The notes under the pieces: model-generated | Told to the model about the DNA's origin: nothing | The model's input: only the letters and a program-made list of their open reading frames with translations | Database searches by the model: none | Assembly (NCBI GenBank): GCA_031260285.1 | Contig: JAIRKD010000075.1 | Span: forward strand, 1-41,365 | Direction of reading: 5' to 3' | From: Gemmatimonadota bacterium | Lineage (GTDB): Bacteria > Gemmatimonadota > Gemmatimonadetes > Longimicrobiales > Longimicrobiaceae | DNA: 41,365 nucleotides | Shown: positions 1,590 to 25,678 of the stretch, in pieces | Layout: every line of letters begins with the position of its first letter | How positions within the stretch are numbered: the stretch's first letter is position 1 | Program-made: the position numbers and the translations under genes

Positions 1590-2618
1590 GGGGGGAGGGA
1601 CGATTCTTTTTGTGGTGGTGAAAAATTGACCCAGGCAAGGGAGAAGGCGAAACCCCGCGTATTTTTCGGCCCGGTACAAAAACAAAACTCTTGCGCTATC
1701 CGACATGGAGAGTAATATGTGAGTTAGTCGCCATCGTGCGATGGTGGAAATCTTCTGTTTCTTCCCTGAATTCTTTTCCTGTTTGCATACATCCGCTGCT
1801 GGAGCTGGTGTTTGTCCTGTCGTTTCTGGCTGGGTGATTCCTGTCCTGTCTGAAGTGGTTTTTCTGAAGCGCTGAGAGCGTTTTTCCGGAAGGGCGTAGA
1901 GATCAGGCCGGGCTTCCTTCATTGCGATATTTCCTCTTTGTGGCCGGAAGAATGATACGCTTGAGGGTCTTCTGAGCATTCTCTGAGTCAGATCTCAGTT
2001 CATCGAGCTGCCGTACCTGCATCGCTGGATCACCTTCTCCCCCGGGGTGCCGCCATGATGGATTTTGTGCCGTCTGTGGGTTTTTCCGGTTCATTCCTGC
2101 TGAGGCGGGTTGGCGCGGGAATCTGCATGCGCACAGAGGCTCTGATCCGGAGGAATCCATGCAAACCCGTTACGCGCATTTCAGTCAACGATGCGTTGTT
2201 CCCGGCGAGTATGCGGGAGCTGGTCAGCTGATCGGATACTCAGAAGGTGTCCCGGAGAATCCAGATTCAGGAAAGAGTACAGGGAAGTCTCGAAGAACTG
2301 GAAGGCGATCCATCCCTGGAATCCCGCCTTCCGGAGCTTTCAGCTCATGTTCGGTGAGGACCGCGTCCCTTTGAGCTCACTTTGGAAACCAGGTTTACAC
2401 AGTTCGCTTTACAGATCCCGGCAGCAGTTCCCTCCTCCCGGCATATATGCCCGTCGCCATCGCTTATTTCTCCCTCCACGCTGACCGAGAATCGGGGTTG
2501 CCTGATCTGGAATGTTACCTGGTTGTAACAAATGTTATGATCGGGTGTGACCTCGAAGGGCAATCATGCAGTCTGTAAGATGCTGTTCCTGTGGGTTTCA
2601 CATCAATTCGAGGCAGAT
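1590..2618. other. Gene-poor kilobase between livF and the peroxidase operon
   Basis: This is the longest stretch without a convincing gene. It is visibly richer in T and lower in GC than its surroundings. I see a possible promoter (TTGCGC 1691-1696, 16-bp spacer, TAATAT 1713-1718) just before a small perfect dyad CCATCG-TG-CGATGG (1731-1744). A 58-codon frame at 2055-2231 and a continuing frame to about 2356 (interrupted by TGA 2229-2231) have protein-like composition and could be a decayed gene. A purine-rich GGAGG lies before ATG 2159, but the 71-codon frame from it looks random. A dyad and putative promoter for the next operon lie at 2513-2541. No tRNA or recognised riboswitch was found. 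Confidence 0.5.
2513..2541 (+). promoter_or_regulatory. Dyad and possible -10 element before the lipoprotein-peroxidase operon
   Basis: TGTTAC (2513-2518) and GTAACA (2525-2530) form a perfect 6-bp dyad with a 6-base centre. It sits next to TATGAT (2536-2541), which resembles a -10 box. The dyad would cover the -35 region, as a repressor operator does. No good -35 hexamer at 17-bp spacing was seen, and the regulator is unknown. The gene start at 2619 is about 78 bases downstream. Confidence 0.35.
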
Positions 2619-4124
2619 ATGAGGTTGAACGGAGCGATTCGACTGGGTACGGCAGCGATCAGTGCCTTTGCGCTTGCCGCGTGTAATGACACCAATTCGA
2701 CAATAACCGACCTTGCCAGCGCAAGTGCCGGGCCCCAGGCCGAGAAGTTTCCGAGTGTGCAGAACTGGTCCGTGACCCCGGCCCTCGTCAAGAACCTCAT
2801 GGGTGGTGTTCAGGCGTATACGATTCTCGGCAGCGATGATGAGCTGGCCGGCTCGCCGAACTACATCTTCGGGGGATCCGCTGACGGTGCCGCGCTCACC
2901 CGCAGCCGGGGTGATGGGACGTACACGCTCCTGGTGAACCATGAGGATAACTTCTCCGTCTCGCGTGTTACCCTCGACAGGAACATGAAGCCGATCAAGG
3001 GTGAGTACCTGATCAACTCTGACATCGGTCGCTTCCGTCTCTGCTCAGCGACACTCGCTACACCGGAAGTACACGGCTTTGGTCCGGTCTTCCTCTCTGC
3101 AGGTGAAAGCAGTATCGAATCGGTGTCACACGCACTGGATCCCTTTGGTGCGGTTGGCAATGATAAACTGCTTCCCGCGCTCGGACACTGGAACGCCGAG
3201 AACCTGGTGCCGCTTCCGAAGCAGACCTTCCCGGGCAGGACAGTAATTGCCATCGGGGATGACGATTCGGGCATCAATGGTGGGCAGTTTGCGCTCTATG
3301 TCAGCGATAAAGTGGGTGATCTGGATAGCGGCAGGCTCTACGTTCTTGCTCCCGCGGCTGGAACAATGATTGAGTCCTCAATCACAGTGGGCCAGGACAT
3401 CCCCGTTGTTTTCAGGCAGATCGAGGGGCAGACACAGATGACCGGTGCCCAGATTGACGCACGGGCCGCGGCGCTTGGAGCCTTCCAGTTCGGGCGTGTG
3501 GAAGACATCGATTACCGGAAGGGAAGCAATTGGGCGAATGGCACGTTGCAGGGTCGCGAAATCTTCTTCATCGTGACCGGCCAGGACTATACGGGCGCAA
3601 ACGCTGATCACTCACGCAGCAAGTATGGTCGTGTGTACCGCCTCCTGCTTGATGCGAAGGATCCGCTCAAGGGCACGCTCTCGGTTGTCCTCAACGGCGA
3701 CGACCGCACCGGCCCTGCCGGAACCTTCCAGAACCCGGATGGCATTCTTGTTACCGAGAACTACTTCTACGTGGGTGAAGATCCCAACGGGTACGGGGAT
3801 GAAACGCACGACGCCTATCTCTATCAGTACAACATCGCCAGTGGTCAGCTGAATGTCGTGACAGAGCTGGATCATCAGCGCACTGCGGTTGACGCTGACA
3901 GATACAACGTGGGTGGGACGTCGCGTTTCGGATCGTGGGAGTACGGTTCGGTGACCGATGTGACCGATCTTCTGGGTTCACCCAACGGTGGTACCACGTT
4001 GATGGTCGCGATCCAGCCGCACACCTGGACGGGCGCGAAATATCGTGCTCCGGATGGTGGTGCTACGCGGGCAAACGAGCAGCAGGCGAGCCAGATGATC
4101 CTGCTTACCGGCCTGCCCAGGTAA
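2619..4124 (+). CDS. Predicted lipoprotein with PhoX/DUF839-like putative beta-propeller
   Basis: I chose ATG 2619 over the longer frame (from 2547) because it gives a clean lipoprotein signal: basic start, hydrophobic run, then AFALAAC with the lipidation Cys at about residue 22. The mature protein (about 480 residues) has short repeated beta-type motifs. Segments such as TLLVNHEDN, a central GRVEDIDYR and a later PDGILVTENYFYVGED resemble the layout of PhoX/DUF839 phosphatase-type propellers, but I could not confirm the metal-site residues. It ends four bases before the next gene, so both are probably one operon and both products are lipid-anchored. A phosphatase or a structural propeller partner of the peroxidase are both possible. 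Function uncertain. Confidence 0.6.
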   Translation: MRLNGAIRLGTAAISAFALAACNDTNSTITDLASASAGPQAEKFPSVQNWSVTPALVKNLMGGVQAYTILGSDDELAGSPNYIFGGSADGAALTRSRGDGTYTLLVNHEDNFSVSRVTLDRNMKPIKGEYLINSDIGRFRLCSATLATPEVHGFGPVFLSAGESSIESVSHALDPFGAVGNDKLLPALGHWNAENLVPLPKQTFPGRTVIAIGDDDSGINGGQFALYVSDKVGDLDSGRLYVLAPAAGTMIESSITVGQDIPVVFRQIEGQTQMTGAQIDARAAALGAFQFGRVEDIDYRKGSNWANGTLQGREIFFIVTGQDYTGANADHSRSKYGRVYRLLLDAKDPLKGTLSVVLNGDDRTGPAGTFQNPDGILVTENYFYVGEDPNGYGDETHDAYLYQYNIASGQLNVVTELDHQRTAVDADRYNVGGTSRFGSWEYGSVTDVTDLLGSPNGGTTLMVAIQPHTWTGAKYRAPDGGATRANEQQASQMILLTGLPR

Positions 4125-4128
4125 CTTG

Positions 4129-5973
4129 ATGCGGCTCTGTGTGATTGCGATCACGTTGGTCCTTGCGGCCTGTTCTTCATGGAGGGACAGGCCGCAGGCC
4201 GATGTTGTCCGACAGGAGCAGATGGTTCGTCTGGATCGGTTGATCAATGCTGTTTCTGAGCTGGATTCAGCCGCGGCACGGGTTTCGGATGATTCCGCGA
4301 GTCAGTATGTGGCGCAGCAGGCCTTTATTCATGCGCGGGCGGCCTACAAGCGTGCTGAGACGCTGATTGAATACTTCACTCCGGTTACTGCCGGGGAAAT
4401 GAACGGACCTGCAATTCCCAGGATGGCACCCGATGAGCCAGCGCAGATCATCACGCCGCCGGATGGGTTTCAGGTCATTGAGGAGATGCTGTTCCCTCAG
4501 GTGAATGTGAAGGAGCGGACAGCTCTGAGCACCGCTGTTCGTGTACTGGGTGGCCACGCACGCAGGGCGAAGACAATCGCCGAGGTATCTTCCTTTACTG
4601 ATACAGCGCTGTTTGACGCCATGCGGCTGGAGCTCACACGGGTGATGTCACTTGGGCTCGCAGGCTTCGACTCCCCCGTTGCCGGGCAGAGTGCGGGGGA
4701 AGCGGCGGAGGCTATCGCTGGTGTCCGGCTCGTTTTTGCGCCGTACGCCCGTGGGCTCGCACTGGTTGATCTGTCACTTGCTCAGGATCTGGATGAGCGG
4801 TTTCTGATGGCTGAATCATGGTTGCGGGAGCAGTCAGCGGAAACGCCGCTCGACCAGCTCACCTTCCTGACCACACAGGGGATTCCGCTGGCGAGGGTGC
4901 TGCAGGAATCGGTGATTGCGCTGGGGATCCCGTTGCCCCTGGAGCCACGGCTCTGGCGCGCAACCGCGGCGTCTCCTTTTGATGATGGCGCCTGGGATGC
5001 CTGGGCGTTTGCGCCGGCCCGGGATCCTCGCGCTACCGCAGAGGTCACTCTGCTCGGAGCCAGGCTCTTTAACGACCCCGTGCTGTCGGGTGATGGGGTA
5101 CGCAGCTGTGCGTCATGTCATAACCCGGAGAAGGGCTTTGTCGATCAGCTGCCCCGGAACTCGGCGATCGGTGGCTCAGGGGTTACACTCCGCAATACAC
5201 CAACCCTGATCAATGCGGCGCTCCAGACAGGGCAGTTCTACGATCTGCGCACAACCTACCTTGAAGATCAGGTAGCCCAGGTTATACAGAATCCGCATGA
5301 GATGAATGGATCTTTGAAAGATGCGGCGACTGTGGTTGGTGAAAACGCCTGGTATCGTGCGGCATTTGCGCGGGCTTTTGACTCATCTTCCGATTCTGTG
5401 GTCACCGAGCGTCAGATCCAGATTGCACTTGCATCGTACGTCCGCTCACTGGTACGCCTTGATGCTCCCTTCGACCGGTATATGCGGGGTGATACAACCG
5501 CAATGAATGAAGCCGCGCGGCGCGGATTTAATACCTTTATGGGGAAGGCCGGATGCGGGAGTTGCCACTTCGCGCCACTCTTCGGCGGACCACTGCCACC
5601 TGTATTTGCCGGGACGGATCTTGAGGTGATAGGGGTACCGGACCACCCGGATACCGTGAATGCAACCATCGACCCGGATGTCGGTGCTTTTTCCGTGACA
5701 CGGATGAGTGTGCATCAGTATGCCTTCAAGGCTCCATCCCTGCGCAACAGTGCGATTACCGCGCCGTATATGCACAACGGTGTATATCAGACATTGGAAG
5801 AGGTAGTGGACTTCTACGACCGCGGAGGTGGTGTGGGGATCGGCATTGATCTGCCGAACCAGACGTTACCGGCAACACCACTGATGCTGACCGCGCAGGA
5901 GAAGTCGGATCTGATCTCATTCCTCGAAGCACTTACGGATGTCGCGGCCCCGGAAACACTCCGGATTCAGTAG
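4129..5973 (+). CDS. Imelysin-like / di-haem cytochrome c peroxidase fusion lipoprotein
   Basis: The protein (614 residues) starts with a lipoprotein signal ending LVLAAC (Cys15); TTG 4126 is an alternative start one codon earlier. Residues about 30-250 are helical and contain DGFQVIEEMLF (112-122), which matches the imelysin GxHxxE region except that the His is Gln. The C-terminal half is a MauG/CcpA-type di-haem peroxidase: haem c motifs CASCH (327-331) and CGSCH (476-480), the LRNTPTLINAA and NPHEM segments between them, and the family's closing APSLRNSAITAPYMHNG segment. It should act in the periplasm and need cytochrome c maturation. Imelysin-family proteins are linked to iron handling and CcpA to peroxide reduction, so an iron or redox role is likely but inferred. 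It is usually near 350 residues without the N-terminal domain. Confidence 0.85.
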   Translation: MRLCVIAITLVLAACSSWRDRPQADVVRQEQMVRLDRLINAVSELDSAAARVSDDSASQYVAQQAFIHARAAYKRAETLIEYFTPVTAGEMNGPAIPRMAPDEPAQIITPPDGFQVIEEMLFPQVNVKERTALSTAVRVLGGHARRAKTIAEVSSFTDTALFDAMRLELTRVMSLGLAGFDSPVAGQSAGEAAEAIAGVRLVFAPYARGLALVDLSLAQDLDERFLMAESWLREQSAETPLDQLTFLTTQGIPLARVLQESVIALGIPLPLEPRLWRATAASPFDDGAWDAWAFAPARDPRATAEVTLLGARLFNDPVLSGDGVRSCASCHNPEKGFVDQLPRNSAIGGSGVTLRNTPTLINAALQTGQFYDLRTTYLEDQVAQVIQNPHEMNGSLKDAATVVGENAWYRAAFARAFDSSSDSVVTERQIQIALASYVRSLVRLDAPFDRYMRGDTTAMNEAARRGFNTFMGKAGCGSCHFAPLFGGPLPPVFAGTDLEVIGVPDHPDTVNATIDPDVGAFSVTRMSVHQYAFKAPSLRNSAITAPYMHNGVYQTLEEVVDFYDRGGGVGIGIDLPNQTLPATPLMLTAQEKSDLISFLEALTDVAAPETLRIQ

Positions 5974-7727: not shown

Positions 7728-8234
7728 CTATTCCACCAGAAGTTTGCCGCGCTCCCCCTCGCTGTAATGATCAAACTCGTCACGGACCATACAGACGAAG
7801 TCGTAGATTCCGGGCTTGAGGGTGGTTTTCAGCAGCGTTGAATCGCCGGGGGAAATCTGCTGGGTCGCGAAGAATTCACCCGTCTCGGCCCGGCGCACCA
7901 CAAAGGTATGCCCCGTCCGGCCGGAGTTGAGGACGTGGAAGGTCACATCCCCCGCCGCGACGGAGGAGTCGGACATCTCGATCCGGTACTCGCGGAAGCG
8001 CACCCCGACCTCGTTTGCGCCGGTTGGCTGCGGAACGGGGAGAAGCGGATGGCTTGTCGCGGTGACCAGCGGGGTCCCGGAGTTTGCGGTTCCCGGACCC
8101 AGGGTTCCCCGAGCTGCGACTTCGGAGATGGATGGATCTGTGTTGCCCGCGGCACCGGCACCCGGGCTGTTATCACCGCATCCCGCGACCAGCGGAAGCA
8201 GCAGAACGGTAAAAAGCGGAAGCTTCAGCCTCAT
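7728..8234 (-). CDS. Small cupredoxin-like lipoprotein
   Basis: The protein is 168 residues with a signal peptide ending PLVAGC (lipidation Cys19), a Gly/Pro/Thr-rich linker to about residue 72, and a cupredoxin domain from about 75. Type 1 copper ligands can be lined up as His109 (TGHTF), Cys148 (YDFVCMV) and His156 (FDHYSEG). At the position where plastocyanin-like proteins carry the axial Met (GMKG), this one has Glu161 (GERG). It is probably an exported, membrane-tethered electron carrier or copper protein. It is transcribed alone and followed by an intrinsic terminator. The divergent neighbour is msrP, also an envelope redox gene, but no shared operon exists. Copper binding is inferred. 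Confidence 0.75.
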   Translation of the reverse strand: MRLKLPLFTVLLLPLVAGCGDNSPGAGAAGNTDPSISEVAARGTLGPGTANSGTPLVTATSHPLLPVPQPTGANEVGVRFREYRIEMSDSSVAAGDVTFHVLNSGRTGHTFVVRRAETGEFFATQQISPGDSTLLKTTLKPGIYDFVCMVRDEFDHYSEGERGKLLVE

Positions 8235-8612: not shown

Positions 8613-9551
8613 ATGCTCATTCGACGTGGCGGCCCGGACATTCCCTCCTCCGAAATCACTCGCGAAGAGGATTATCTCAACCGTCGGGAGTTTATCGGAC
8701 GGGTTGGCGCGGGTGCCCTGGCGGCTGCGGTGGGCGGGGTGAGCATCGCGTCTGACAACGCGTCTGCGCAGACGGCTCCCGGCGGGCGTCAGAGCTCCGA
8801 TCCGCTCACTCCTCTGGAGTCGGTGACCCGGTACAACAACTTCTACGAATTCGGCTTCGACAAGGAAGATCCCTACCGGAACTCCGGCGGCTTTGTCCCC
8901 CGTCCCTGGACGGTGGTTGTGGAGGGACACGTCAACAAGCCGGCGGCGTACGATCTGGAGGATCTCATCCGCCCGTTTACGGTTGAGGAGCGGATCTACC
9001 GCCTCCGCTGTGTGGAGGCCTGGTCGATGGTGATCCCCTGGCGGGGCTTCCCGTTGCGTGACCTCATCAACCGGGTTGAACCTACCTCCCGGGCGCGGTT
9101 TGTCGCCTTTGAGACCATCTTCCGGCCGGCTGAGATGTCCGGTCAGCGCTCCCGCGTCATGGACTGGCCCTATGTGGAAGGGCTGCGCATGGACGAGGCG
9201 ATGCATCCGCTGACGCTGATCGCCACGGGGCTGTACAACCAGAATCTGCCCAACCAGAACGGCGCTCCGCTCCGGCTGGTGGTCCCCTGGAAATACGGGT
9301 TCAAGAGCATCAAATCGATTGTGAAGATCTCGTTTGTGGAGAGCCAGCCGCCCACCACCTGGAACCGGATGGCCCCCGAAGAATACGGCTTCTACGCCAA
9401 TGTGAATCCCGAGGTGGATCATCCCCGCTGGAGCCAGGCGCGTGAACGGCGGATCGGGGAGCTGCTCCGCCGCCCGACGCTGATGTACAACGGGTACGGT
9501 GACCAGGTGGCAAGCCTCTATCGGGGGATGAACCTCGTCCGGAACTACTGA
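8613..9551 (+). CDS. msrP: Protein-methionine-sulfoxide reductase catalytic subunit MsrP
   Basis: This periplasmic molybdopterin enzyme reduces methionine sulfoxide in oxidised envelope proteins. The 312 residues follow the E. coli protein closely: twin-arginine signal RREFIG (Arg24-Arg25) followed by an Ala-rich h-region, YNNFYEFG near 74-81, [16 protein letters not shown] with the Mo-ligand Cys133, [14 protein letters not shown], and [18 protein letters not shown] near the end. The length of the region before the twin arginines also matches known MsrP, supporting this ATG. It is followed after four bases by msrQ, its membrane partner. Export should be by Tat with cofactor already loaded. 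Confidence 0.95.
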
Positions 9552-9555
9552 CCGG

Positions 9556-10191
9556 ATGAGCCAGCCGCGTCCGACACCGCGGAAGCCCGGGGTGGAGCCC
9601 TGGGTTGCGGCCACCCTGCTCGCGGCCCTGCCGCTGGTGAAGATCCTCGTTGACACCACCACCGGGCAGCTGGGTGCTGATCCTGTTGAAGCACTGATCC
9701 GTCGAACGGGCTGGTGGGCGCTGACGCTGCTCGTGGCAACCCTCGCGGTCACCCCCGTCCGCCGTTTCACGGGGTGGAACCGGATCATCACGATCCGGAA
9801 GCCGCTCGGGCTGATGTCGTTCCTGTACGCCTGTCTGCACTTCCTTCTCTATGTGGGGATCGATCAGTTTTTCGCCTTCTCCTACATCATCGAGGATATC
9901 CTTGAGCGGCCGTACATCACGGCGGGGTTCGTCGCACTCCTGATGCTTCTGGCGCTTGCGGTGACGTCCCGGCGGGATTCGATCCGGAAACTCGGGGGAA
10001 AACGCTGGCGTCGGATCCATTTCCTGATCTATCCTGCCTCTCTGCTGGCCGTGCTGCACTATTACTGGCTGGTGAAGGCGGATACCCGGCCGCCTCTGGC
10101 GTTTGCGGGAGTGGTGATGGTCCTGCTCCTGGCCCGGCTGCCCGGGTCGCGACTCTTCTCCCGATCACTTTCCACGCCGGTCCCTCGTTGA
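9556..10191 (+). CDS. msrQ: Haem-binding membrane subunit MsrQ
   Basis: This is the inner-membrane b-haem protein that passes electrons from the quinone or flavin pool to MsrP. The protein has 211 residues and about six hydrophobic helices. His95 (YACLHFLLY), His155 (RRIHFLIYP) and His168 (AVLHYYWLV) fall where the haem ligands of the family lie. WWALTLLVATLAVTPVRR and the RKPLGLMSF turn are family-typical. It starts four bases after the msrP stop and is surely co-transcribed. The downstream waaA begins 16 bases after its stop, so the same transcript may continue. Confidence 0.93.
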   Translation: MSQPRPTPRKPGVEPWVAATLLAALPLVKILVDTTTGQLGADPVEALIRRTGWWALTLLVATLAVTPVRRFTGWNRIITIRKPLGLMSFLYACLHFLLYVGIDQFFAFSYIIEDILERPYITAGFVALLMLLALAVTSRRDSIRKLGGKRWRRIHFLIYPASLLAVLHYYWLVKADTRPPLAFAGVVMVLLLARLPGSRLFSRSLSTPVPR

Positions 10192-14013: not shown

Positions 14014-15447
14014 TCACTGCGGCATCCACCACATCGGGGTGTCCAGCGGGGTGTTGACGTAGTCCTTTGCGTACCGGTTGTACAGTGCCTCCCGGACCGG
14101 ATATGGCATACGGGAAGGAAGCTGAGCAAGAGCCGCTTTGGCAGGCAGCGGCAGCGCGGGAACACCCGTCCGGCGAACTTCCGCAAAGCTTTCCGGTCCG
14201 TTCAGGAAGAGTGCGATCCACTTCTGGAGCTGGATGCTTGCCACCCCGCTGTAGGCGTTCCCCGGGATTGCGAGATAGCTCTCGATCGCGGCTGCCGGAA
14301 CACCGTTGTTCTCCATCGCCGCGGTGATCCCTGCCCGGTACAACGTTCCCGCGTCGTCCGGAATCCATCCGAGCGTTGCCGCCTCCGCGCCCAGCAGAAG
14401 CACCTCTGCCCGCGTCATCAGTACAGACGGGGCTGAGGCTGCGGTGAATACGGGCCCGAGTGTGGAGAAATCATTCACCCCCAGCCCGAGGTCTGCGGGA
14501 AGGTCTCCGTTTGACAGGCCCCGGAAGAGGCTTCCGTTCACCGTGGGCGCAGCAAAGATCTCAAGCCGCGGATCCGCCCGCCCGGCGAGAATATCCACCA
14601 GAGTTCTGCTCATCCGGAAATCGTTCCCCCGCCCACCCAGGGTGAACGCCTCGAAGATCGGATTCTGTGAAGGCAGAACGCCCGACCAGCGCAACACCGC
14701 GTTGTCAGCGTTGGTTGTGATCGGTGTGTCCGCCCAGGCATCCGCAAACGCCTGCCCGGCCAGCGCCGCCGCCGAGGTGCCGGAGATCCGGATCGCGATA
14801 CGCAGCCGCAGCGAATTTGCAAACTTCCGCCACTTCAGCAGATCGCCGCCATAGATCAGATCACTGCGGGCCCAGGACGGGTTGCCAGCCGGATCAATCT
14901 GCCTGACCGCTTCCTCCAGGCGTGTGAGCAGATCAGGGTAGATCTCCGCCTGCGGAGTGAACCGCGGCTCCCGGTTCTGCTCAAGGTCCAGCGCATCGAA
15001 ATACGGCACATCCCCGAAGAGGTCGGTCAGGAAGAGGAATCCGTAGACTTCGAGGATATCGGTAACGGCGACGAGGTTTGCGTCGTCAGCCTCTTTACCG
15101 AGTCGCTGGGCATCATCCAGGTCAGCCAGTGTGCCCGCGTACATCTCCGTCCAGATACTCTCGTTGAGCCCGGCCCGCGGAGTATACCGGTCCTCGTCGT
15201 TGTACGCAGACTGGGCAAGATGCTGTGACCAGATGGTTGTGTGGTAGAGTGTGGTCCACTCTCCCATTACACCCCGGCCCGCGCTGTTGGATACCAGAGT
15301 CCAGATCCCGCCCGAAAGCAGAGACTCAACCGGTACCTTCTCCGGGTTGTTCGGGTTGATGTTGATCCCTGTCAGGCCCAGATCACAGCCGCTGACCACG
15401 CCCAGCAGCCCGATCATCGGGATCAGTCCTTTCCACCGGGAGATCAT
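14014..15447 (-). CDS. SusD/RagB-like outer-membrane substrate-binding lipoprotein
   Basis: This is the surface lipoprotein lid of a SusCD importer. ATG 15447 is chosen because GGGAGAG lies just upstream and the product then starts MISRWKGLIP with a lipobox GVVSGC. The 477-residue protein shows NINPNNPEK just after the signal, the helical YGFLFLTDLFGDVPYFDAL segment (read in two parts), LLKWRKFANSLRLRIAIRIS, and a C-terminal WIALFLNGPESFAEVRRTG stretch. These belong to the SusD-like family common in Bacteroidota and Gemmatimonadota. It follows susC after a 26-bp gap and ends before a terminator. No glycosidase or peptidase neighbour reveals the substrate. Confidence 0.9.
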   Translation of the reverse strand: MISRWKGLIPMIGLLGVVSGCDLGLTGININPNNPEKVPVESLLSGGIWTLVSNSAGRGVMGEWTTLYHTTIWSQHLAQSAYNDEDRYTPRAGLNESIWTEMYAGTLADLDDAQRLGKEADDANLVAVTDILEVYGFLFLTDLFGDVPYFDALDLEQNREPRFTPQAEIYPDLLTRLEEAVRQIDPAGNPSWARSDLIYGGDLLKWRKFANSLRLRIAIRISGTSAAALAGQAFADAWADTPITTNADNAVLRWSGVLPSQNPIFEAFTLGGRGNDFRMSRTLVDILAGRADPRLEIFAAPTVNGSLFRGLSNGDLPADLGLGVNDFSTLGPVFTAASAPSVLMTRAEVLLLGAEAATLGWIPDDAGTLYRAGITAAMENNGVPAAAIESYLAIPGNAYSGVASIQLQKWIALFLNGPESFAEVRRTGVPALPLPAKAALAQLPSRMPYPVREALYNRYAKDYVNTPLDTPMWWMPQ

Positions 15448-15473
15448 CGTTTTCTCTCCCTTCGGGCGCGCGT

Positions 15474-18400
15474 TCACGGTCGCACCGTCACGGTCAGCCC
15501 GATGCTCCGCGCTGGCGGGGTCTGCCCGTATTCGAAGCCCTGGACGTTGCCCGCTTCACTGGCCGTCTCGGGATCGATGTGCGGATTCTCCTTCGGCGTC
15601 CAGAGCCAGAGGTTCCGTCCGATCAGTGCGACCTGCAGCGCATTGGCACCCGTCCGCCGGGTCCAGGAGCTGGGAAGGTTGTAGGAGAGGGTCAGCTCAC
15701 GCAGCTTCACGAAGCTGCCGTTGATGATGTTGGCTTCGGCGGTCTGGTAGTAGTAGTTCATGGCCACCACCTGACCACTGCGGGCCCGGGTGTTCCGGAC
15801 GTATGTCGTATCTCCGTTGGTGACTACCCGCTGTACGCCATCAATGATGACCCCGGTCTCGGCATCACAGACCGGATAAGAAGAGCCTGGTACCGCGCTC
15901 TTTTCCACACACCGGCCCCAGTCAGCGGTTTCCGCCAGCACACCGGTGAAGGTGCCGAACATCTTGGTAGCGGAGAAGATATCTCCACCGACCTTCGTAT
16001 CGATCAGCCCCGAAAACCCGAAGTTGCCCCAGCTTACTGTATTCTGCCAACCCGCCCGCCAGTGGGGGTTGAAGTTGCCGATCACCTGATTTGAAAGGCG
16101 GGCAATGGGCAGCCCGGTTGTACCTGTGAGAATCTCACCGTTGGTTACGCAGCGGGTCCCCGCTGTTTCTGTACATCCCGCGATCGGCACACCGACAGGG
16201 GCACGCTGGAAGGCGGTCCCGATGATCTGGCCGTACTCCTCACCCTCGCGGGCGAAGATGCTTGCGCCCCAGAAGTCCCCGATGCCGATCTCCAGGCCAC
16301 TGACTCCATCAGCCAGTTTCTCAACCACACTCCGGTTCTTCGACCAGGTCAGCGTGGTGCGCCAGTGGAGGTTGTTCTTCTGGACCGGAACACCGGTGAG
16401 CAGCACCTCCCAACCCCGGTTGCGAACGCTCCCGGCGTTCACGTACTGGCTGGCATACCCCGTTGCGGGCGAGATATTGATCGGGAAGATCTGATCCCTT
16501 GTCACCTCGTTGTAACGGGTGATATCCAGACCCAGCCGGTCCCGGAGGAACCCGAGCTCCACACCAAACTCCCTGGAACTGGTGACTTCCGGCCTCAGAT
16601 CCTCATTCAGCCGGATGTTGGGGACCTGGAAGGTTGGCGTTCCCTCCCAGATCTCTCCCGGAGTATACGCGTTACGCAGGCTGTACGGGTCCGTGTCGTT
16701 ACCCACCCGCGCCCAGCTTGCCCGCAGCTTCCCATGGCTGATCACATCGCTGTTCGCGAGAAACGGGATGACATCCGTAAAGACAAAGCTGCTGCTTATC
16801 GAGGGATAGAAGTACGAATTCGCATTCTCGGGCAGTGTGGACGACCAGTCGTTCCGACCCGTGAAGTTGAAGAACAGATAGTTGTTGTAGCCGAACTCAG
16901 CCTGTCCGTAGAGGCTGTTGATCGCTTTCCGCGAAGTCCGGATGTACGTCTCCGGGGTGACGGCGGCGTTGCTGATGTTGTAGATGCCCGGAGTGGTAAG
17001 CCGTCCGACCCAGAGGTAGTTATGCGTTCGCTCCCAGTCCCGGCGTCCTCCACCAAGGGTGAAGGCGGTGGTGAAGGGAAGCCCCATCCCGGGGTTGGCG
17101 CTCAGCAGGAAATCCGTATTCCGCTCCTGGAAGCCGAGGTTCCAGTCTCCGAAGGCACCGGTTTCCTGCACAAAGTCCCGGCTGGCCGTGAGCGGATTGG
17201 TGGTGTACAGACCACAGCAGTTTCCTTCCGCCCAGGAGCGGATCCGCTCGTCCTGGTACCAGTCGATGGACGTCCGCACCATTCCCCCCAGCCAGGGCAG
17301 GAGCTGATAGGAACCGGAGATCTGCCCGATCAGGCGGTTACGGGTGTCGCTGTTGTGGTTCACCAGCTGCAGGAAGTACGGATTGTTGTGGTATTCCTGC
17401 TGCCAGTTGACATAACTGCCTGCCGCCGGATGGTCGTCAGCATAGCGGGTCAGGTAGAGCTGCCTGAGCACTCCCGTATCCACCTGCCGGCCGAACCAGA
17501 CACCCATGGAGTTCATCGGGTTGTTCCCGTCGTAACCCTGGGCCGGACGGTTCTGCGCTTCATGGGTGATGAACTGGACCGAGGAGTTCACCGACAGCCG
17601 GTCGTTCGGCTGCACCCCGCCCGCCATGCTGATGGTGGTCCGCCCGATCCCGAAGCCCGGTGTGATTCCCCTCTGGTCGTAGCGGGAAAGAGAGAACCGG
17701 CCATTGGCACGCTCCGTCGCACTCGCGACTGAAACGTTGGTGACCCGTGTGTTCCCCGTCTCGAAGAAGTCCTTCACATTGTCGGGCCGCGAAACCCAGG
17801 GCAGCGGTTCCAGAATCGTCCGGCCATCCGCATCCATTCCGAGCACCCGACTGTTGAACTGGGGGATCATCAACCCCTGATCAAGAGCCGGTCCCCAGCT
17901 TTCATCCACGTCATCATAGATGCCGTTCCCCTTCCCGTCGTAGTACTCGAAGAGACCGTTGGCACCCTGACCGTATTTATTCTGGTACTTCGGCAGACGC
18001 AGAGTATTCTCGAAGCTGATCGCCTGTGATGCGACCACCTCCGCGCCTCCCGTTGCCGAACTCCCCTTCTTTGTCTCGATGACAACCACCCCGTTTGATG
18101 CCCGTGACCCGTAGAGCGCCGCGGCGTTGGCTCCCTTGAGGACCGTGACCGATTCAATTGAGCCCGGGGCGATGTCGTTGATCAGTGTGCCGTAGTCGTA
18201 GCCGCCCTGATTGACAACAACACCCTGCGCTCCGCCTGAGTAGTTGTCGACGGGAACGCCATCAATCACAAACAGCGGCTGGTTATTCCCGAGAAGTGAA
18301 TTTTCACCACGGATGATAATGCGTGATGACCCGCCCTGTGTGGTTGCGCTTGTCACGTTTATGCCGGACACCTGACCGGACAGACTGGTGACAATGTTGG

Positions 18401-18842
18401 GAGCGATGACGCTCAGCTGATCGCCATTGAGCTGCTGCGCAGCGACGCCCAGAGTGCGCGCCGACCGTTCCATCCCGAGCGCCGTAACCACAACACCCTC
18501 GATGGTGATGACTGATGAAACGAGGCGCAGACTGACCTCTTCCGTGGTCCCTGCGGCAAGCGGAACGGACAGCGTACCCTCGTTGTAGCCGATAACGCTG
18601 GCCCGGAGGGTGTACGTTCCCGCGGGTACATTGGCGAGAGTGAAGCGCCCCACTGCGTCCGTGATCGCCCCGAGGTTCCCCGGCACCAGAGAGCCCTGGA
18701 CAGCGGTGACCCGGGCTCCTGCGAGAGGGCGCATCGAGGTTGCATCCACCACAATCCCCCGGATCGTGCCCTGCTGCGCTGCCACACCCGATGGCATGAT
18801 CAGGATGCCCAGCAGAACCATCAGCCGACGCAGATTATTCAA
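15474..18842 (-). CDS. SusC/RagA-type TonB-linked outer-membrane transporter
   Basis: This large beta-barrel imports the substrate captured by its SusD partner, using TonB energy. I chose TTG 18842 because GGAGAG stands eight bases before it and the product begins with a signal peptide ending GVAAQQ; an in-frame GTG 18866 would put that ribosome site inside the gene. The 1,122 residues contain a carboxypeptidase-regulatory-like domain (about 25-105: GTIRGIVVDATSMRPLAGA, then AGTYTLRASVIGY), the plug region with IIIRGENSLLGNNQPLFVID and GVPVDNY, then the barrel ending in SIGLTVTVRP with an aromatic-poor tail. VVVTALGMERS marks the start of the plug. It heads the susCD transcript. Confidence 0.93.
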   Translation of the reverse strand: MNNLRRLMVLLGILIMPSGVAAQQGTIRGIVVDATSMRPLAGARVTAVQGSLVPGNLGAITDAVGRFTLANVPAGTYTLRASVIGYNEGTLSVPLAAGTTEEVSLRLVSSVITIEGVVVTALGMERSARTLGVAAQQLNGDQLSVIAPNIVTSLSGQVSGINVTSATTQGGSSRIIIRGENSLLGNNQPLFVIDGVPVDNYSGGAQGVVVNQGGYDYGTLINDIAPGSIESVTVLKGANAAALYGSRASNGVVVIETKKGSSATGGAEVVASQAISFENTLRLPKYQNKYGQGANGLFEYYDGKGNGIYDDVDESWGPALDQGLMIPQFNSRVLGMDADGRTILEPLPWVSRPDNVKDFFETGNTRVTNVSVASATERANGRFSLSRYDQRGITPGFGIGRTTISMAGGVQPNDRLSVNSSVQFITHEAQNRPAQGYDGNNPMNSMGVWFGRQVDTGVLRQLYLTRYADDHPAAGSYVNWQQEYHNNPYFLQLVNHNSDTRNRLIGQISGSYQLLPWLGGMVRTSIDWYQDERIRSWAEGNCCGLYTTNPLTASRDFVQETGAFGDWNLGFQERNTDFLLSANPGMGLPFTTAFTLGGGRRDWERTHNYLWVGRLTTPGIYNISNAAVTPETYIRTSRKAINSLYGQAEFGYNNYLFFNFTGRNDWSSTLPENANSYFYPSISSSFVFTDVIPFLANSDVISHGKLRASWARVGNDTDPYSLRNAYTPGEIWEGTPTFQVPNIRLNEDLRPEVTSSREFGVELGFLRDRLGLDITRYNEVTRDQIFPINISPATGYASQYVNAGSVRNRGWEVLLTGVPVQKNNLHWRTTLTWSKNRSVVEKLADGVSGLEIGIGDFWGASIFAREGEEYGQIIGTAFQRAPVGVPIAGCTETAGTRCVTNGEILTGTTGLPIARLSNQVIGNFNPHWRAGWQNTVSWGNFGFSGLIDTKVGGDIFSATKMFGTFTGVLAETADWGRCVEKSAVPGSSYPVCDAETGVIIDGVQRVVTNGDTTYVRNTRARSGQVVAMNYYYQTAEANIINGSFVKLRELTLSYNLPSSWTRRTGANALQVALIGRNLWLWTPKENPHIDPETASEAGNVQGFEYGQTPPARSIGLTVTVRP

Positions 18843-19185
18843 TCTCTTCTCTCCTTGAATGCGCACTGAGGGGCAGGGGCGCTTTCAGTGCTTCCGGTAA
18901 GACAGTCCGTCCGCTTCCGGAACGGACTTCTCTGACTCGGAACTTCCCTGCAGGAGAAGGTGACGCCCTTTCTCACAGACAGGAAGGTACATCGGGTTGG
19001 TCGCTGTTCTGACCGGCACGGAACGATACCATCGCCTGTCAATAAGGATAGCTTCTTCCCCGTCGCAATCAGGAAGGTTCCTGAATCGGATCCGGCCGCA
19101 ACCGGACGGGACGGGGAGCGGGTCGTCGGATCCCACCCGGTGGAAGCTCCGGAGCGACCTGCCCGGAAAGGCTCTGATGGAGCCA
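18843..19185. other. Gap between trpE and susC (343 bp)
   Basis: The region should contain the susC leader and promoter on the minus strand. A TTGACA lies at 19042-19037 (minus) but has no -10 match at the right distance. A weak hairpin GGCTC-TGATG-GAGCC (19170-19184) follows the trpE stop and could end that transcript. No gene seen. Confidence 0.4.
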
Positions 19186-24235: not shown

Positions 24236-25678
24236 CTACGTCCGTGACCGGGGAGTAGAAGACCGTGCCGGTTGAGACAGGTCGTGGAAGACAACCGTGT
24301 CCTCCTCAACCTGCCATTCCTCCCGGGGCCAGAGCTCGAAGGTGCCGGGAACCACAACCGGACGGATCTCCTGCATCGACGCAATCAGGAGGAAGTTCTG
24401 CGCATCGGGGAAGTCCTGCCCCCGGTGAGTCCAGAGCTCCACAAAGGGGAAGACATCCGCAAAGGTGCGCACAACCGACCAGAACCGTACCGCCGACTTC
24501 CCGGCAAGCGTTCCGATCAGATTCATCCCCATAACTCCGCCCGGCCGCAGGATCCCCGCGATAAGCAGGGCGGCGTCACGGGTGACCAGCGGGTAGGGAG
24601 TGATCTCGCTCCCGCCGTAGACATCCATGAACACCCGGTCGAATGAAGCGGGCTCAGCGGTCTCCAGAAACGCCCGGGCGTCACCATGAACCGTACGGAT
24701 CCCCAGGTGCGGCTTCAGTCCGAAGAACCGTTGCGCAAGACGGGTTGCCTCGGGGTCCAGCTCAACCACGCAGACCTCCGCGGAGGCATCACGCTCCGCG
24801 ATCCGGCGCGGGAGTGTATATGCGCCTCCACCCAGGAACAGATAGGCCGCGCCCGCGGGAGTACTCGAAACCAGCCACTGCTCCGCCGCGGCCACATACG
24901 CCAGCGTTGGCGTCCCCCCGCGAACCAGCTCCCCTGACTCCTGTTCATCGTTGAGGTACAGCCTGCGCTCCGGCTGGCGCTCTCCGGGATAGTCCACCTC
25001 AGTCACCGTCCAGACGCCAAGTGGAGAGCCAACCTCGGCGAGCTGGGTCTCGTAAGAGCGGCTCATGGCCGGCACCCGAAGCAGAAACGGGAGCAGGAGA
25101 GAGAACGTCGCGAGGATCATCACCGACCCCCGGTTCCATTCATCGGGAATGGCCAGGACCATAACCAGAATCGCTGCGGCAAACCCCACCAGGAATGCGG
25201 GCATGAAGAGCCCCGTGACAAACCGTTCAAGGTCCGTCGGGTCCTCTCCATCCTCATCCAGATCCCGGGCGGAGGTGATGAGCCGGACTGGAATGCGGCC
25301 CAGTGCATAGGCAGGTGCCGCGACCCCCAGAAGCAGACCGCCGATCTTCCAGGGGATGGAGGGGAAGGCGTTGGAGTAGACAGGAGCCAGCGTCCCCCAG
25401 ATCGCCGCCAGGGCGGTCAGTGAACTGGCGAGAAGCCAGCGATCCCGGAGTGGAGGAAGCACATCCTCCGTATCAGGGTCGCTTGCCCAGAGCCCGATCG
25501 CAAAGGCCAGTATGGAGACAGCGGCGACAACCACCCACCCCCGAAGAGAGGTGGAGATATCCAGCGTGATGGAGCCGCCGACGATGAGCGTGATCCCCCA
25601 CGCCCAGCCGGCGATGCCTGTATGCACCGCAATTGTCCTTCTCGCCCGGTCTTCCGGTAGTGATCCCTGAATGTCCAT
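24236..25678 (-). CDS. Membrane protein with spermidine-synthase-like domain
   Basis: The 480-residue protein has an N-terminal membrane half with about six helices (roughly 22-40, 48-66, 83-100, 112-130, 155-178, 186-203) and a C-terminal aminopropyltransferase/methyltransferase fold. In the latter YLFLGGGAYTLPR (279-291) is the SAM-binding glycine loop, VCVVELDPEAT (302-312) the acidic strand end, VHGDARAFL (330-338) and FDRVFMDVYGG (346-356) the catalytic-side motifs. Such fused proteins are common but uncharacterised; aminopropyl transfer to a polyamine is one possibility, and methyl transfer another. Start ATG 25678 is the only sensible one. It is transcribed alone and is convergent with the preceding plus-strand genes. 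Confidence 0.8.
   Translation of the reverse strand: MDIQGSLPEDRARRTIAVHTGIAGWAWGITLIVGGSITLDISTSLRGWVVVAAVSILAFAIGLWASDPDTEDVLPPLRDRWLLASSLTALAAIWGTLAPVYSNAFPSIPWKIGGLLLGVAAPAYALGRIPVRLITSARDLDEDGEDPTDLERFVTGLFMPAFLVGFAAAILVMVLAIPDEWNRGSVMILATFSLLLPFLLRVPAMSRSYETQLAEVGSPLGVWTVTEVDYPGERQPERRLYLNDEQESGELVRGGTPTLAYVAAAEQWLVSSTPAGAAYLFLGGGAYTLPRRIAERDASAEVCVVELDPEATRLAQRFFGLKPHLGIRTVHGDARAFLETAEPASFDRVFMDVYGGSEITPYPLVTRDAALLIAGILRPGGVMGMNLIGTLAGKSAVRFWSVVRTFADVFPFVELWTHRGQDFPDAQNFLLIASMQEIRPVVVPGTFELWPREEWQVEEDTVVFHDLSQPARSSTPRSRT

What the first reader, a model, noticed from the sequence alone, without database searches (positions are those of the whole stretch)
2619..5973. Two-lipoprotein operon: PhoX-like propeller plus imelysin-di-haem peroxidase fusion
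The second gene joins an imelysin-like helical domain to a MauG/CcpA-type peroxidase with both CxxCH motifs (CASCH 327-331, CGSCH 476-480), and the adjoining gene encodes another lipid-anchored protein. In the known EfeUOB system an imelysin-family protein (EfeO) and a haem peroxidase (EfeB) work together in iron uptake as separate proteins. A covalent pair, tethered to the membrane and operonic with a propeller lipoprotein, could be a parallel iron- or redox-handling module. The fusion is seen; the function is inferred.
Basis: partly seen in the sequence, partly recalled or inferred. Interest (0 to 1): 0.6.

Follow-up and report, generated by a model that had tools for sequence, protein, structure and literature searches.

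The report
Phosphatase with fused imelysin–haem partner
A gene pair, probably switched on by phosphate starvation, makes a lipid-anchored PhoX-type phosphatase together with a partner that fuses an iron-uptake-type helical domain to a two-haem enzyme; the same partner sits beside secreted phosphatases of unrelated folds in many bacteria, so it may be a general helper that activates secreted phosphatases.

Summary
LP1 (2619-4124) is a lipoprotein of the PhoX alkaline-phosphatase family. LP2 (4126-5973) is a lipoprotein joining an imelysin domain (GxQxxE instead of GxHxxE) to a MauG/BthA-type di-haem domain. The pair is conserved in Bacteroidota and Gemmatimonadota. The Flavobacterium version (Fjoh_2478/2477) is published as strongly phosphate-starvation induced, with a suggestion that the MauG-like protein matures PhoX.

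New here: (1) the "MauG-like" partner belongs to an imelysin fusion family; (2) LP2 homologues lie beside a phosphatase gene at 26/26 Gemmatimonadota places and 77/79 Bacteroidota loci, but the phosphatase fold varies (PhoX, PF04185 phosphoesterase, calcineurin-like, purple acid phosphatase); (3) a Pho-box-like 11-bp direct repeat precedes the window operon and most Gemmatimonadota homologues, and lies between phoB and pstS in the window's genome; (4) PhoX partners of LP2 have Sec or lipoprotein signals, whereas stand-alone PhoX in the phylum mostly have Tat signals and never co-occur with LP2.

Best explanation: LP2 matures Sec-exported phosphatases outside the cytoplasm, probably by iron loading or oxidation. 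The phosphatase link is strong; the mechanism is inferred.

The parts
2514..2529 (+). Pho-box-like direct repeat GTTAC-N6-GTAAC (11-bp period), about 105 bp upstream of LP1
   Evidence: 13 of 19 Gemmatimonadota LP1 upstream regions carry GTNAY-N6-GTNAY (null mean 0.45, maximum 3 in 500 shuffles); spacings 11/22/33 dominate; same motif between phoB and pstS of the same genome
2619..4124 (+). LP1: PhoX-family (divergent clade) lipoprotein, putative phosphatase, 501 aa
2619..2684 (+). LP1 Sec lipoprotein signal, lipobox LAAC, no twin-arginine
   Evidence: Cys22 invariant in 34 homologues
3042..3044 (+). LP1 Cys142, invariant; aligns with the Cys of the PhoX motif NCxxGxTPW(G)TxxTCEE
   Evidence: further invariant residues Glu163, Glu194-Asn195, Arg293, Glu295-Asp296, Glu387-Asp388
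4126..5973 (+). LP2: lipoprotein fusing imelysin-like and MauG/BthA-like di-haem domains, 615 aa (614 from ATG 4129)
4198..4920 (+). Imelysin-like helical domain (about residues 25-265)
   Evidence: helices in model; invariant or near-invariant R71, K75, E78, N93, G94, G114, Q116, E119, D182, E192
4465..4482 (+). GFQVIE: GxQxxE variant of the imelysin GxHxxE motif (Q in 98 of 102 homologues)
5023..5940 (+). Di-haem CCP_MauG domain (about residues 300-605)
5107..5121 (+). First haem c site CASCH (residues 328-332)
5554..5568 (+). Second haem c site CGSCH (residues 477-481)
5815..5817 (+). Tyr564, position of the MauG/BthA Tyr ligand of the six-coordinate haem (102 of 102); Met in classical peroxidases
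   Evidence: Alignment to 2c1u and 6e1c, column count

Best explanation
The operon is a Pho-regulated phosphate-scavenging unit. LP1 is a PhoX-family phosphomonoesterase exported by Sec and lipid-anchored, probably at the outer membrane. LP2 is its dedicated, co-localised maturation partner. Because LP1 is exported unfolded rather than pre-loaded through Tat, its Fe(III)/Ca centre must be built outside the cytoplasm. The imelysin domain would hold and hand over iron, and the MauG/BthA-type di-haem domain would use peroxide-level oxidation to set it as Fe(III), or oxidise the enzyme's active site. Shown: the domains, the pairing, the signal-peptide contrast, the partner swapping among phosphatase folds, and the repeat shared with phoB-pstS. 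Published for the Flavobacterium pair: induction by phosphate depletion, and a phoX mutant with less phosphatase activity. Inferred: that LP2 acts on the phosphatase, and that iron loading or oxidation is the act. I put about 0.85 on a phosphate-acquisition role, 0.6 on LP2 being needed for phosphatase activity, and 0.35-0.4 on iron loading or oxidation specifically.
For: Phosphatase next to LP2: 68 PhoX, 6 PF04185 and 3 purple acid phosphatase out of 79 evaluable Bacteroidota loci; 18 PhoX, 4 PF04185 and 4 calcineurin-like out of 26 Gemmatimonadota places. Partner type changed at least 8 times on the LP2 tree, with PF04185 and calcineurin-like partners arising more than once. Plain di-haem peroxidases without imelysin had no phosphatase neighbour in 6 plasmid loci, about 4 of them independent. 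Pho-box-like repeat. Flavobacterium PhoX-like and MauG-like genes rise together in phosphate depletion (12.50 and 9.58 in the paper's transcript FC column; PMC8115612); deleting phoX lowers inducible phosphatase activity, and phoX alone is inactive in P. putida (PMC8812569). Stand-alone PhoX in the phylum carry twin-arginine signals in 22 of 29 against 2 of 87 for LP2-linked PhoX. PhoX holds two Fe(III) and three Ca and is thought to be iron-loaded before Tat export (PMC4223295). No genome with stand-alone PhoX has the LP2 fusion (0 of 76; p=0.0006). BthA, another MauG-like enzyme, sits beside a putative purple acid phosphatase (PMC6405878).
Against: No experiment on any LP2 protein is known to me. 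PF04185 enzymes are not established here as iron enzymes, so an iron-only mechanism may not cover all partners. The failure of phoX alone in P. putida can have other causes (mislocalised lipoprotein), as its authors say. Fisher tests ignore phylogeny. LP1 stands without LP2 in one genome (G135), and LP2 without a clear phosphatase in L050 and with only a weak, distant candidate in L062. Six of 19 LP1 upstream regions, including that of the nearest relative G032, lack the repeat.
Confidence: 0.5

Rival explanations
1. LP2 is a MauG-type modifying enzyme: it makes a specific covalent oxidation (e.g. on Trp, Tyr or Cys) in the phosphatase, creating a protein-derived cofactor; the imelysin domain only docks the partner.
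For: All 102 homologues keep the MauG/BthA-type Tyr at the six-coordinate haem and the distal Gln and Glu; MauG and MbnH models are the best NCBIfam matches. Lidbury et al. suggested this for Flavobacterium (PMC8812569); Rizzolo et al. suggested oxidation of the phosphatase by BthA (PMC6405878). LP1 has invariant Trp440 and Trp470.
Against: Partners have unrelated folds, so one shared target motif is unlikely. The inter-haem Trp of MauG is not conserved (Y 44, A 22, W 18, S 7 of 102), though BthA works without it. A conserved imelysin functional site would be unnecessary for docking alone.
Confidence: 0.22
2. LP2 does not act on the phosphatase: it is an iron- or peroxide-handling protein co-regulated with phosphatases because phosphate and iron are freed together (iron phytate, iron phosphates) at the cell surface.
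For: Imelysins belong to iron-regulated operons and usually accompany peroxidases (PMC3143127). LP2 can occur with different phosphatases.
Against: No iron transporter or receptor is a conserved neighbour; the conserved neighbours are phosphatases and, in Hymenobacter, an LRR protein. LP1-type PhoX almost never occurs without LP2 (18 of 20). The Sec/Tat contrast is unexplained.
Confidence: 0.2
3. LP2 is a peroxidase or oxygenase acting on the phosphatase's substrate or product (for example oxidising an organophosphorus compound before or after dephosphorylation), like other di-haem oxygenases of the superfamily.
For: RoxA-like cytochrome region weakly matched (PF21419, E=0.0019); di-haem enzymes of fatty-acid oxygenation are known in the superfamily (PMC4496055, abstract). 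One LP2 gene lies with phosphonate and phosphate transport genes (Hymenobacter NBH84 plasmid).
Against: Different phosphatases would have to share a substrate class; nothing explains the imelysin domain or the Sec/Tat contrast.
Confidence: 0.08

Closest known systems
Flavobacterium johnsoniae PhoX-like / MauG-like operon (Fjoh_2478 / Fjoh_2477), PMC8115612 and PMC8812569
   Same: Divergent PhoX-like lipoprotein without clear Pfam match, in one operon with a MauG-like cytochrome c peroxidase gene; Flavobacterium loci fetched here carry exactly this pair.
   Different: Window pair is in another phylum, about 40% identical to the Flavobacterium proteins. The imelysin domain, the partner swapping and the Sec/Tat contrast do not appear in the passages read.
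BthA / phosA of Burkholderia (PMC6405878)
   Same: MauG-like di-haem enzyme with Tyr-His six-coordinate haem and no required inter-haem Trp, beside an exported putative phosphatase.
   Different: BthA has no imelysin domain that I know of; its partner is a putative purple acid phosphatase, not PhoX.
MauG and MbnH
   Same: Same di-haem fold, Tyr ligand position, distal Gln and Glu; both act on or beside a partner protein.
   Different: Scores below the equivalog cut-offs; no methylamine or methanobactin genes seen nearby; imelysin domain added.
EfeO/EfeB and imelysin-EfeB-like fusions (PMC3143127)
   Same: Imelysin fold combined with a haem peroxidase; [quoted passage not shown]
   Different: Catalytic half is CCP_MauG (PF03150); GxQxxE motif; partner is a phosphatase; no EfeU permease.
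PhoX of Pseudomonas fluorescens
   Same: LP1 has the same fold and conserved Cys and Glu motif positions.
   Different: LP1 is a Sec lipoprotein of a divergent clade; canonical PhoX is Tat-exported, and no genome of this phylum with a canonical PhoX had LP2.

Membership tests
PhoX alkaline phosphatase (PF05787) | Profile or fold match | tested here: met
   Model's top PDB matches are PhoX, E=2.7e-15; same-family homologue passes PF05787 at 3.2e-9; profile-profile with two PF05787-positive groups 97%. LP1 itself falls below Pfam reporting.
PhoX alkaline phosphatase (PF05787) | Fe/Ca ligand residues | tested here: inconclusive
   Cys142, Glu194, Glu295 invariant and aligned with PhoX motif positions; ligand set not mapped on a solved structure. 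Fjoh_2478 reported with 9 of 10 key residues.
PhoX alkaline phosphatase (PF05787) | Phosphomonoesterase activity | not testable with these tools
   Deletion of the Flavobacterium relative lowers inducible activity (PMC8812569).
PhoX alkaline phosphatase (PF05787) | Tat export | tested here: not met
   Sec lipoprotein signal, no twin-arginine; this marks canonical PhoX rather than the fold, so LP1 is filed as a divergent PhoX.
Imelysin-like superfamily | Imelysin fold by profile | tested here: met
   all-helical model.
Imelysin-like superfamily | GxHxxE motif | tested here: not met
   GxQxxE in most of 102 homologues. The superfamily also holds GxxxxE members such as IPPA (PMC3143127), so this excludes the classical imelysin/EfeO families, not the superfamily.
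MauG-type di-haem enzymes | Two CxxCH, Tyr ligand of six-coordinate haem, distal Gln and Glu | tested here: met
   Invariant C328/C331/H332, C477/C480/H481, Q382, E392, Y564 in 102 homologues.
MauG-type di-haem enzymes | Inter-haem Trp | tested here: not met
   Tyr372 in window; Y/A/W/S in family; BthA also lacks it.
MauG-type di-haem enzymes | bis-Fe(IV) state and partner oxidation | not testable with these tools
   Needs spectroscopy and a partner assay.
EfeUOB iron uptake | EfeU permease and EfeB-type peroxidase in the locus | tested here: not met
   Peroxidase half is PF03150; the adjacent window genes are a PhoX-type phosphatase and a Na/Ala symporter.
Pho regulon | PhoB-box-like repeat upstream | tested here: met
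   binding by PhoB not tested.

The most novel reading that the evidence does not exclude
LP2-type imelysin-di-haem fusions are a general extracytoplasmic maturation factor for Sec-exported metallophosphatases, serving enzymes of at least three unrelated folds and replacing cytoplasmic metal loading plus Tat export.
Probability: 0.33. Interest if true: 0.82.

Novelty: new variant of a known kind. Interest (0 to 1): 0.6.

Why it matters
How imelysin domains and orphan MauG-like enzymes work, and how iron phosphatases get their metal outside the cytoplasm, are open questions. This family ties all three together and makes a sharp prediction: a PhoX given a Tat signal should no longer need LP2. 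Phosphatases of this kind are prominent in plant-associated Bacteroidota, so it also bears on soil phosphorus cycling, and on why such an enzyme can fail when expressed alone in a foreign host.

Tried and rejected
EfeUOB-like iron uptake as the main reading: rejected because the conserved neighbours are phosphatases. MauG or MbnH equivalog: rejected on model cut-offs. Chance or artefactual fusion: rejected, since about 100 homologues share both halves. Single-sequence Pfam for the imelysin half was only marginal (E=0.06), so a family profile was used. A first tree held one wrong-strand row (L116) and was rebuilt. A first scan for the forward E. coli-like Pho-box form was unconvincing except in the window and two others; the GTNAC form was then noticed in the printed sequences, so its shuffle statistic is after the fact, but the pst clusters were an independent check. 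The same repeat is only weakly enriched upstream of Bacteroidota operons. A literature search for PhoX ligand numbering gave nothing useful. The LP2 fold search listed only di-haem peroxidases among its 50 best, so the imelysin half rests on sequence profiles, not on a fold match.
Full report
What is there. LP1 (2619-4124) and LP2 (4126-5973) are co-oriented and practically contiguous, both with a lipobox. LP1 has no direct Pfam match, but its AlphaFold model (pLDDT 86.5) has P. fluorescens PhoX as top PDB match at E=2.7e-15, about nine orders of magnitude ahead of the next fold. Its homologue in a genome of the same family (G032, about 59% identical) and the Gemmatimonas-type homologues pass the PF05787 cut-off. 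LP2 residues 300-605 are a di-haem CCP_MauG domain. Residues 25-265 are imelysin-like by family profile: Peptidase_M75 7q1g 7e-7, EfeO 7wgu 2.9e-5. The classical GxHxxE reads GxQxxE, with Q in 98 of 102 homologues and with R71, K75, E78, N93, D182 and E192 conserved. The di-haem half keeps the MauG/BthA Tyr ligand position and the distal Gln and Glu in all 102, but not the inter-haem Trp.

Conservation. LP2 fusions were found across Bacteroidota (80 loci) and in the window's own phylum (25 of 298 genomes). That phylum is very probably Gemmatimonadota: relative G019 is a single 4,636,964-base contig, which I recall as the length of G. aurantiaca T-27; this identification rests on memory. LP1-type PhoX is present in 20 of 298 genomes, 18 of them with LP2 adjacent. 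The two others are a contig end (G282) and one real exception (G135).

The neighbour is nearly always a phosphatase, but not always the same one. In 68 of 79 evaluable Bacteroidota loci a PhoX-family gene precedes LP2, in three subfamilies: A (LP1-like), H (Hymenobacter, PF05787 5.5e-47, with an LRR gene in between) and S (Saprospiraceae/Lewinella, 9.4e-25). In six it is a PF04185 phosphoesterase (three of the six tested against Pfam, E down to 1.5e-88; the others by their near-identical starts) and in three a purple acid phosphatase. Only L050 has none and L062 a weak, distant candidate; L106 is truncated. All eight Gemmatimonadota places without LP1 have another phosphatase: PF04185 in L112, L115, L117 (by a profile built here) and L119, and calcineurin-like in L113, L114, L116 and L118. 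In two of these (G033, G027) LP2 is broken by apparent frameshifts. On the LP2 tree the partner type changes at least eight times, and PF04185 and calcineurin-like partners each arise more than once (quick tree, long branches). Six plasmid loci of plain di-haem peroxidases, about four independent, had no phosphatase neighbour, a small control.

Regulation. The upstream region of LP1 holds GTTAC-N6-GTAAC at 2514-2529. GTNAY-N6-GTNAY occurs in 13 of 19 Gemmatimonadota LP1 upstream regions against 0.45 expected, mostly near -85 to -130, and GTNAC spacings are 11, 22 and 33 bp. The form was noticed in these sequences before it was counted, and most of these genomes belong to one genus. As an independent check, it also occurs between phoB-like and pstS-like genes of the window's own genome (L153 2131-2146; flanking genes identified) and upstream of pst clusters of G019, G074 and G039. 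This is what a Pho box would look like; binding is untested, and the enrichment is weak in Bacteroidota.

Prior work. In F. johnsoniae the PhoX-like lipoprotein Fjoh_2478 and the MauG-like Fjoh_2477 form one operon, strongly induced by phosphate depletion. Deleting phoX lowers inducible phosphatase activity, phoX alone is inactive in P. putida, and the authors suggested MauG-like maturation. I could not fetch F. johnsoniae itself; the many Flavobacterium loci held here carry the same pair. A fusion of imelysin with an EfeB-like domain was noted in 2011. BthA sits beside a putative purple acid phosphatase and its authors proposed oxidation of that partner.

Mechanism. PhoX carries two Fe(III) and three Ca, purple acid phosphatases carry Fe(III) plus a divalent metal, and PhoX and PhoD are thought to be iron-loaded in the cytoplasm before Tat export. 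I tested the implied contrast. Stand-alone PhoX of the same phylum show a twin-arginine signal in 22 of 29, most of the rest having misassigned or truncated starts; LP2-linked PhoX show it in 2 of 87. No genome with stand-alone PhoX has an LP2 fusion (0 of 76, p=0.0006, uncorrected for phylogeny). The simplest account is that LP2 provides, outside the cytoplasm, what Tat-exported PhoX receives inside: iron handled by the imelysin domain and oxidised or installed by the di-haem domain. That LP2 acts on the phosphatase, and how, is inferred. Site-specific MauG-like modification is the main rival, weakened by the unrelated folds of the partners; simple co-regulation of iron and phosphate scavenging is the second.

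Verdict. The pair itself belongs to a kind described in Flavobacterium. The imelysin identity, the partner swapping across phosphatase folds, the Pho-box-like element and the Sec/Tat contrast were not found in the papers read, and together they make a testable new hypothesis.

Noticed in passing
L130 (Hymenobacter sp. NBH84 plasmid): PhoX-LRR-LP2 unit near IS3 transposase genes and followed by a Na/Pi symporter and a phosphonate-degradation oxygenase gene: a possible mobile phosphate-acquisition island.
   Followed up: partly
L051, L052, L059, L063 and other Hymenobacter-type loci: A leucine-rich-repeat protein of about 305 aa is inserted between PhoX and LP2, often overlapping the LP2 start by 4 nt; role unknown.
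   Followed up: no
L105 2663-5756: Two tandem LP1-type genes upstream of one LP2 in Cnuella takakiae.
   Followed up: no
window 7731-8234 (-): Lipoprotein with a cupredoxin-like domain (PF13473 at cut-off) about 2 kb downstream; EfeO proteins carry a cupredoxin domain, but linkage to this operon was not tested.
   Followed up: partly
window 14017-18866 (-): SusD-like_2 lipoprotein and TonB-dependent receptor pair; a GTNAC-N6-GTNAC repeat lies inside the receptor ORF at 16501-16516.
   Followed up: partly
window 8613-10188: Molybdopterin oxidoreductase plus ferric-reductase-like membrane protein, resembling MsrPQ.
   Followed up: no
window 24239-25678 (-): 480-aa ORF without any Pfam match at 1e-4.
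   Followed up: no
L121 (G135): An LP1-type PhoX without LP2 within about 4 kb; a natural test of whether LP1 can work alone.
   Followed up: partly
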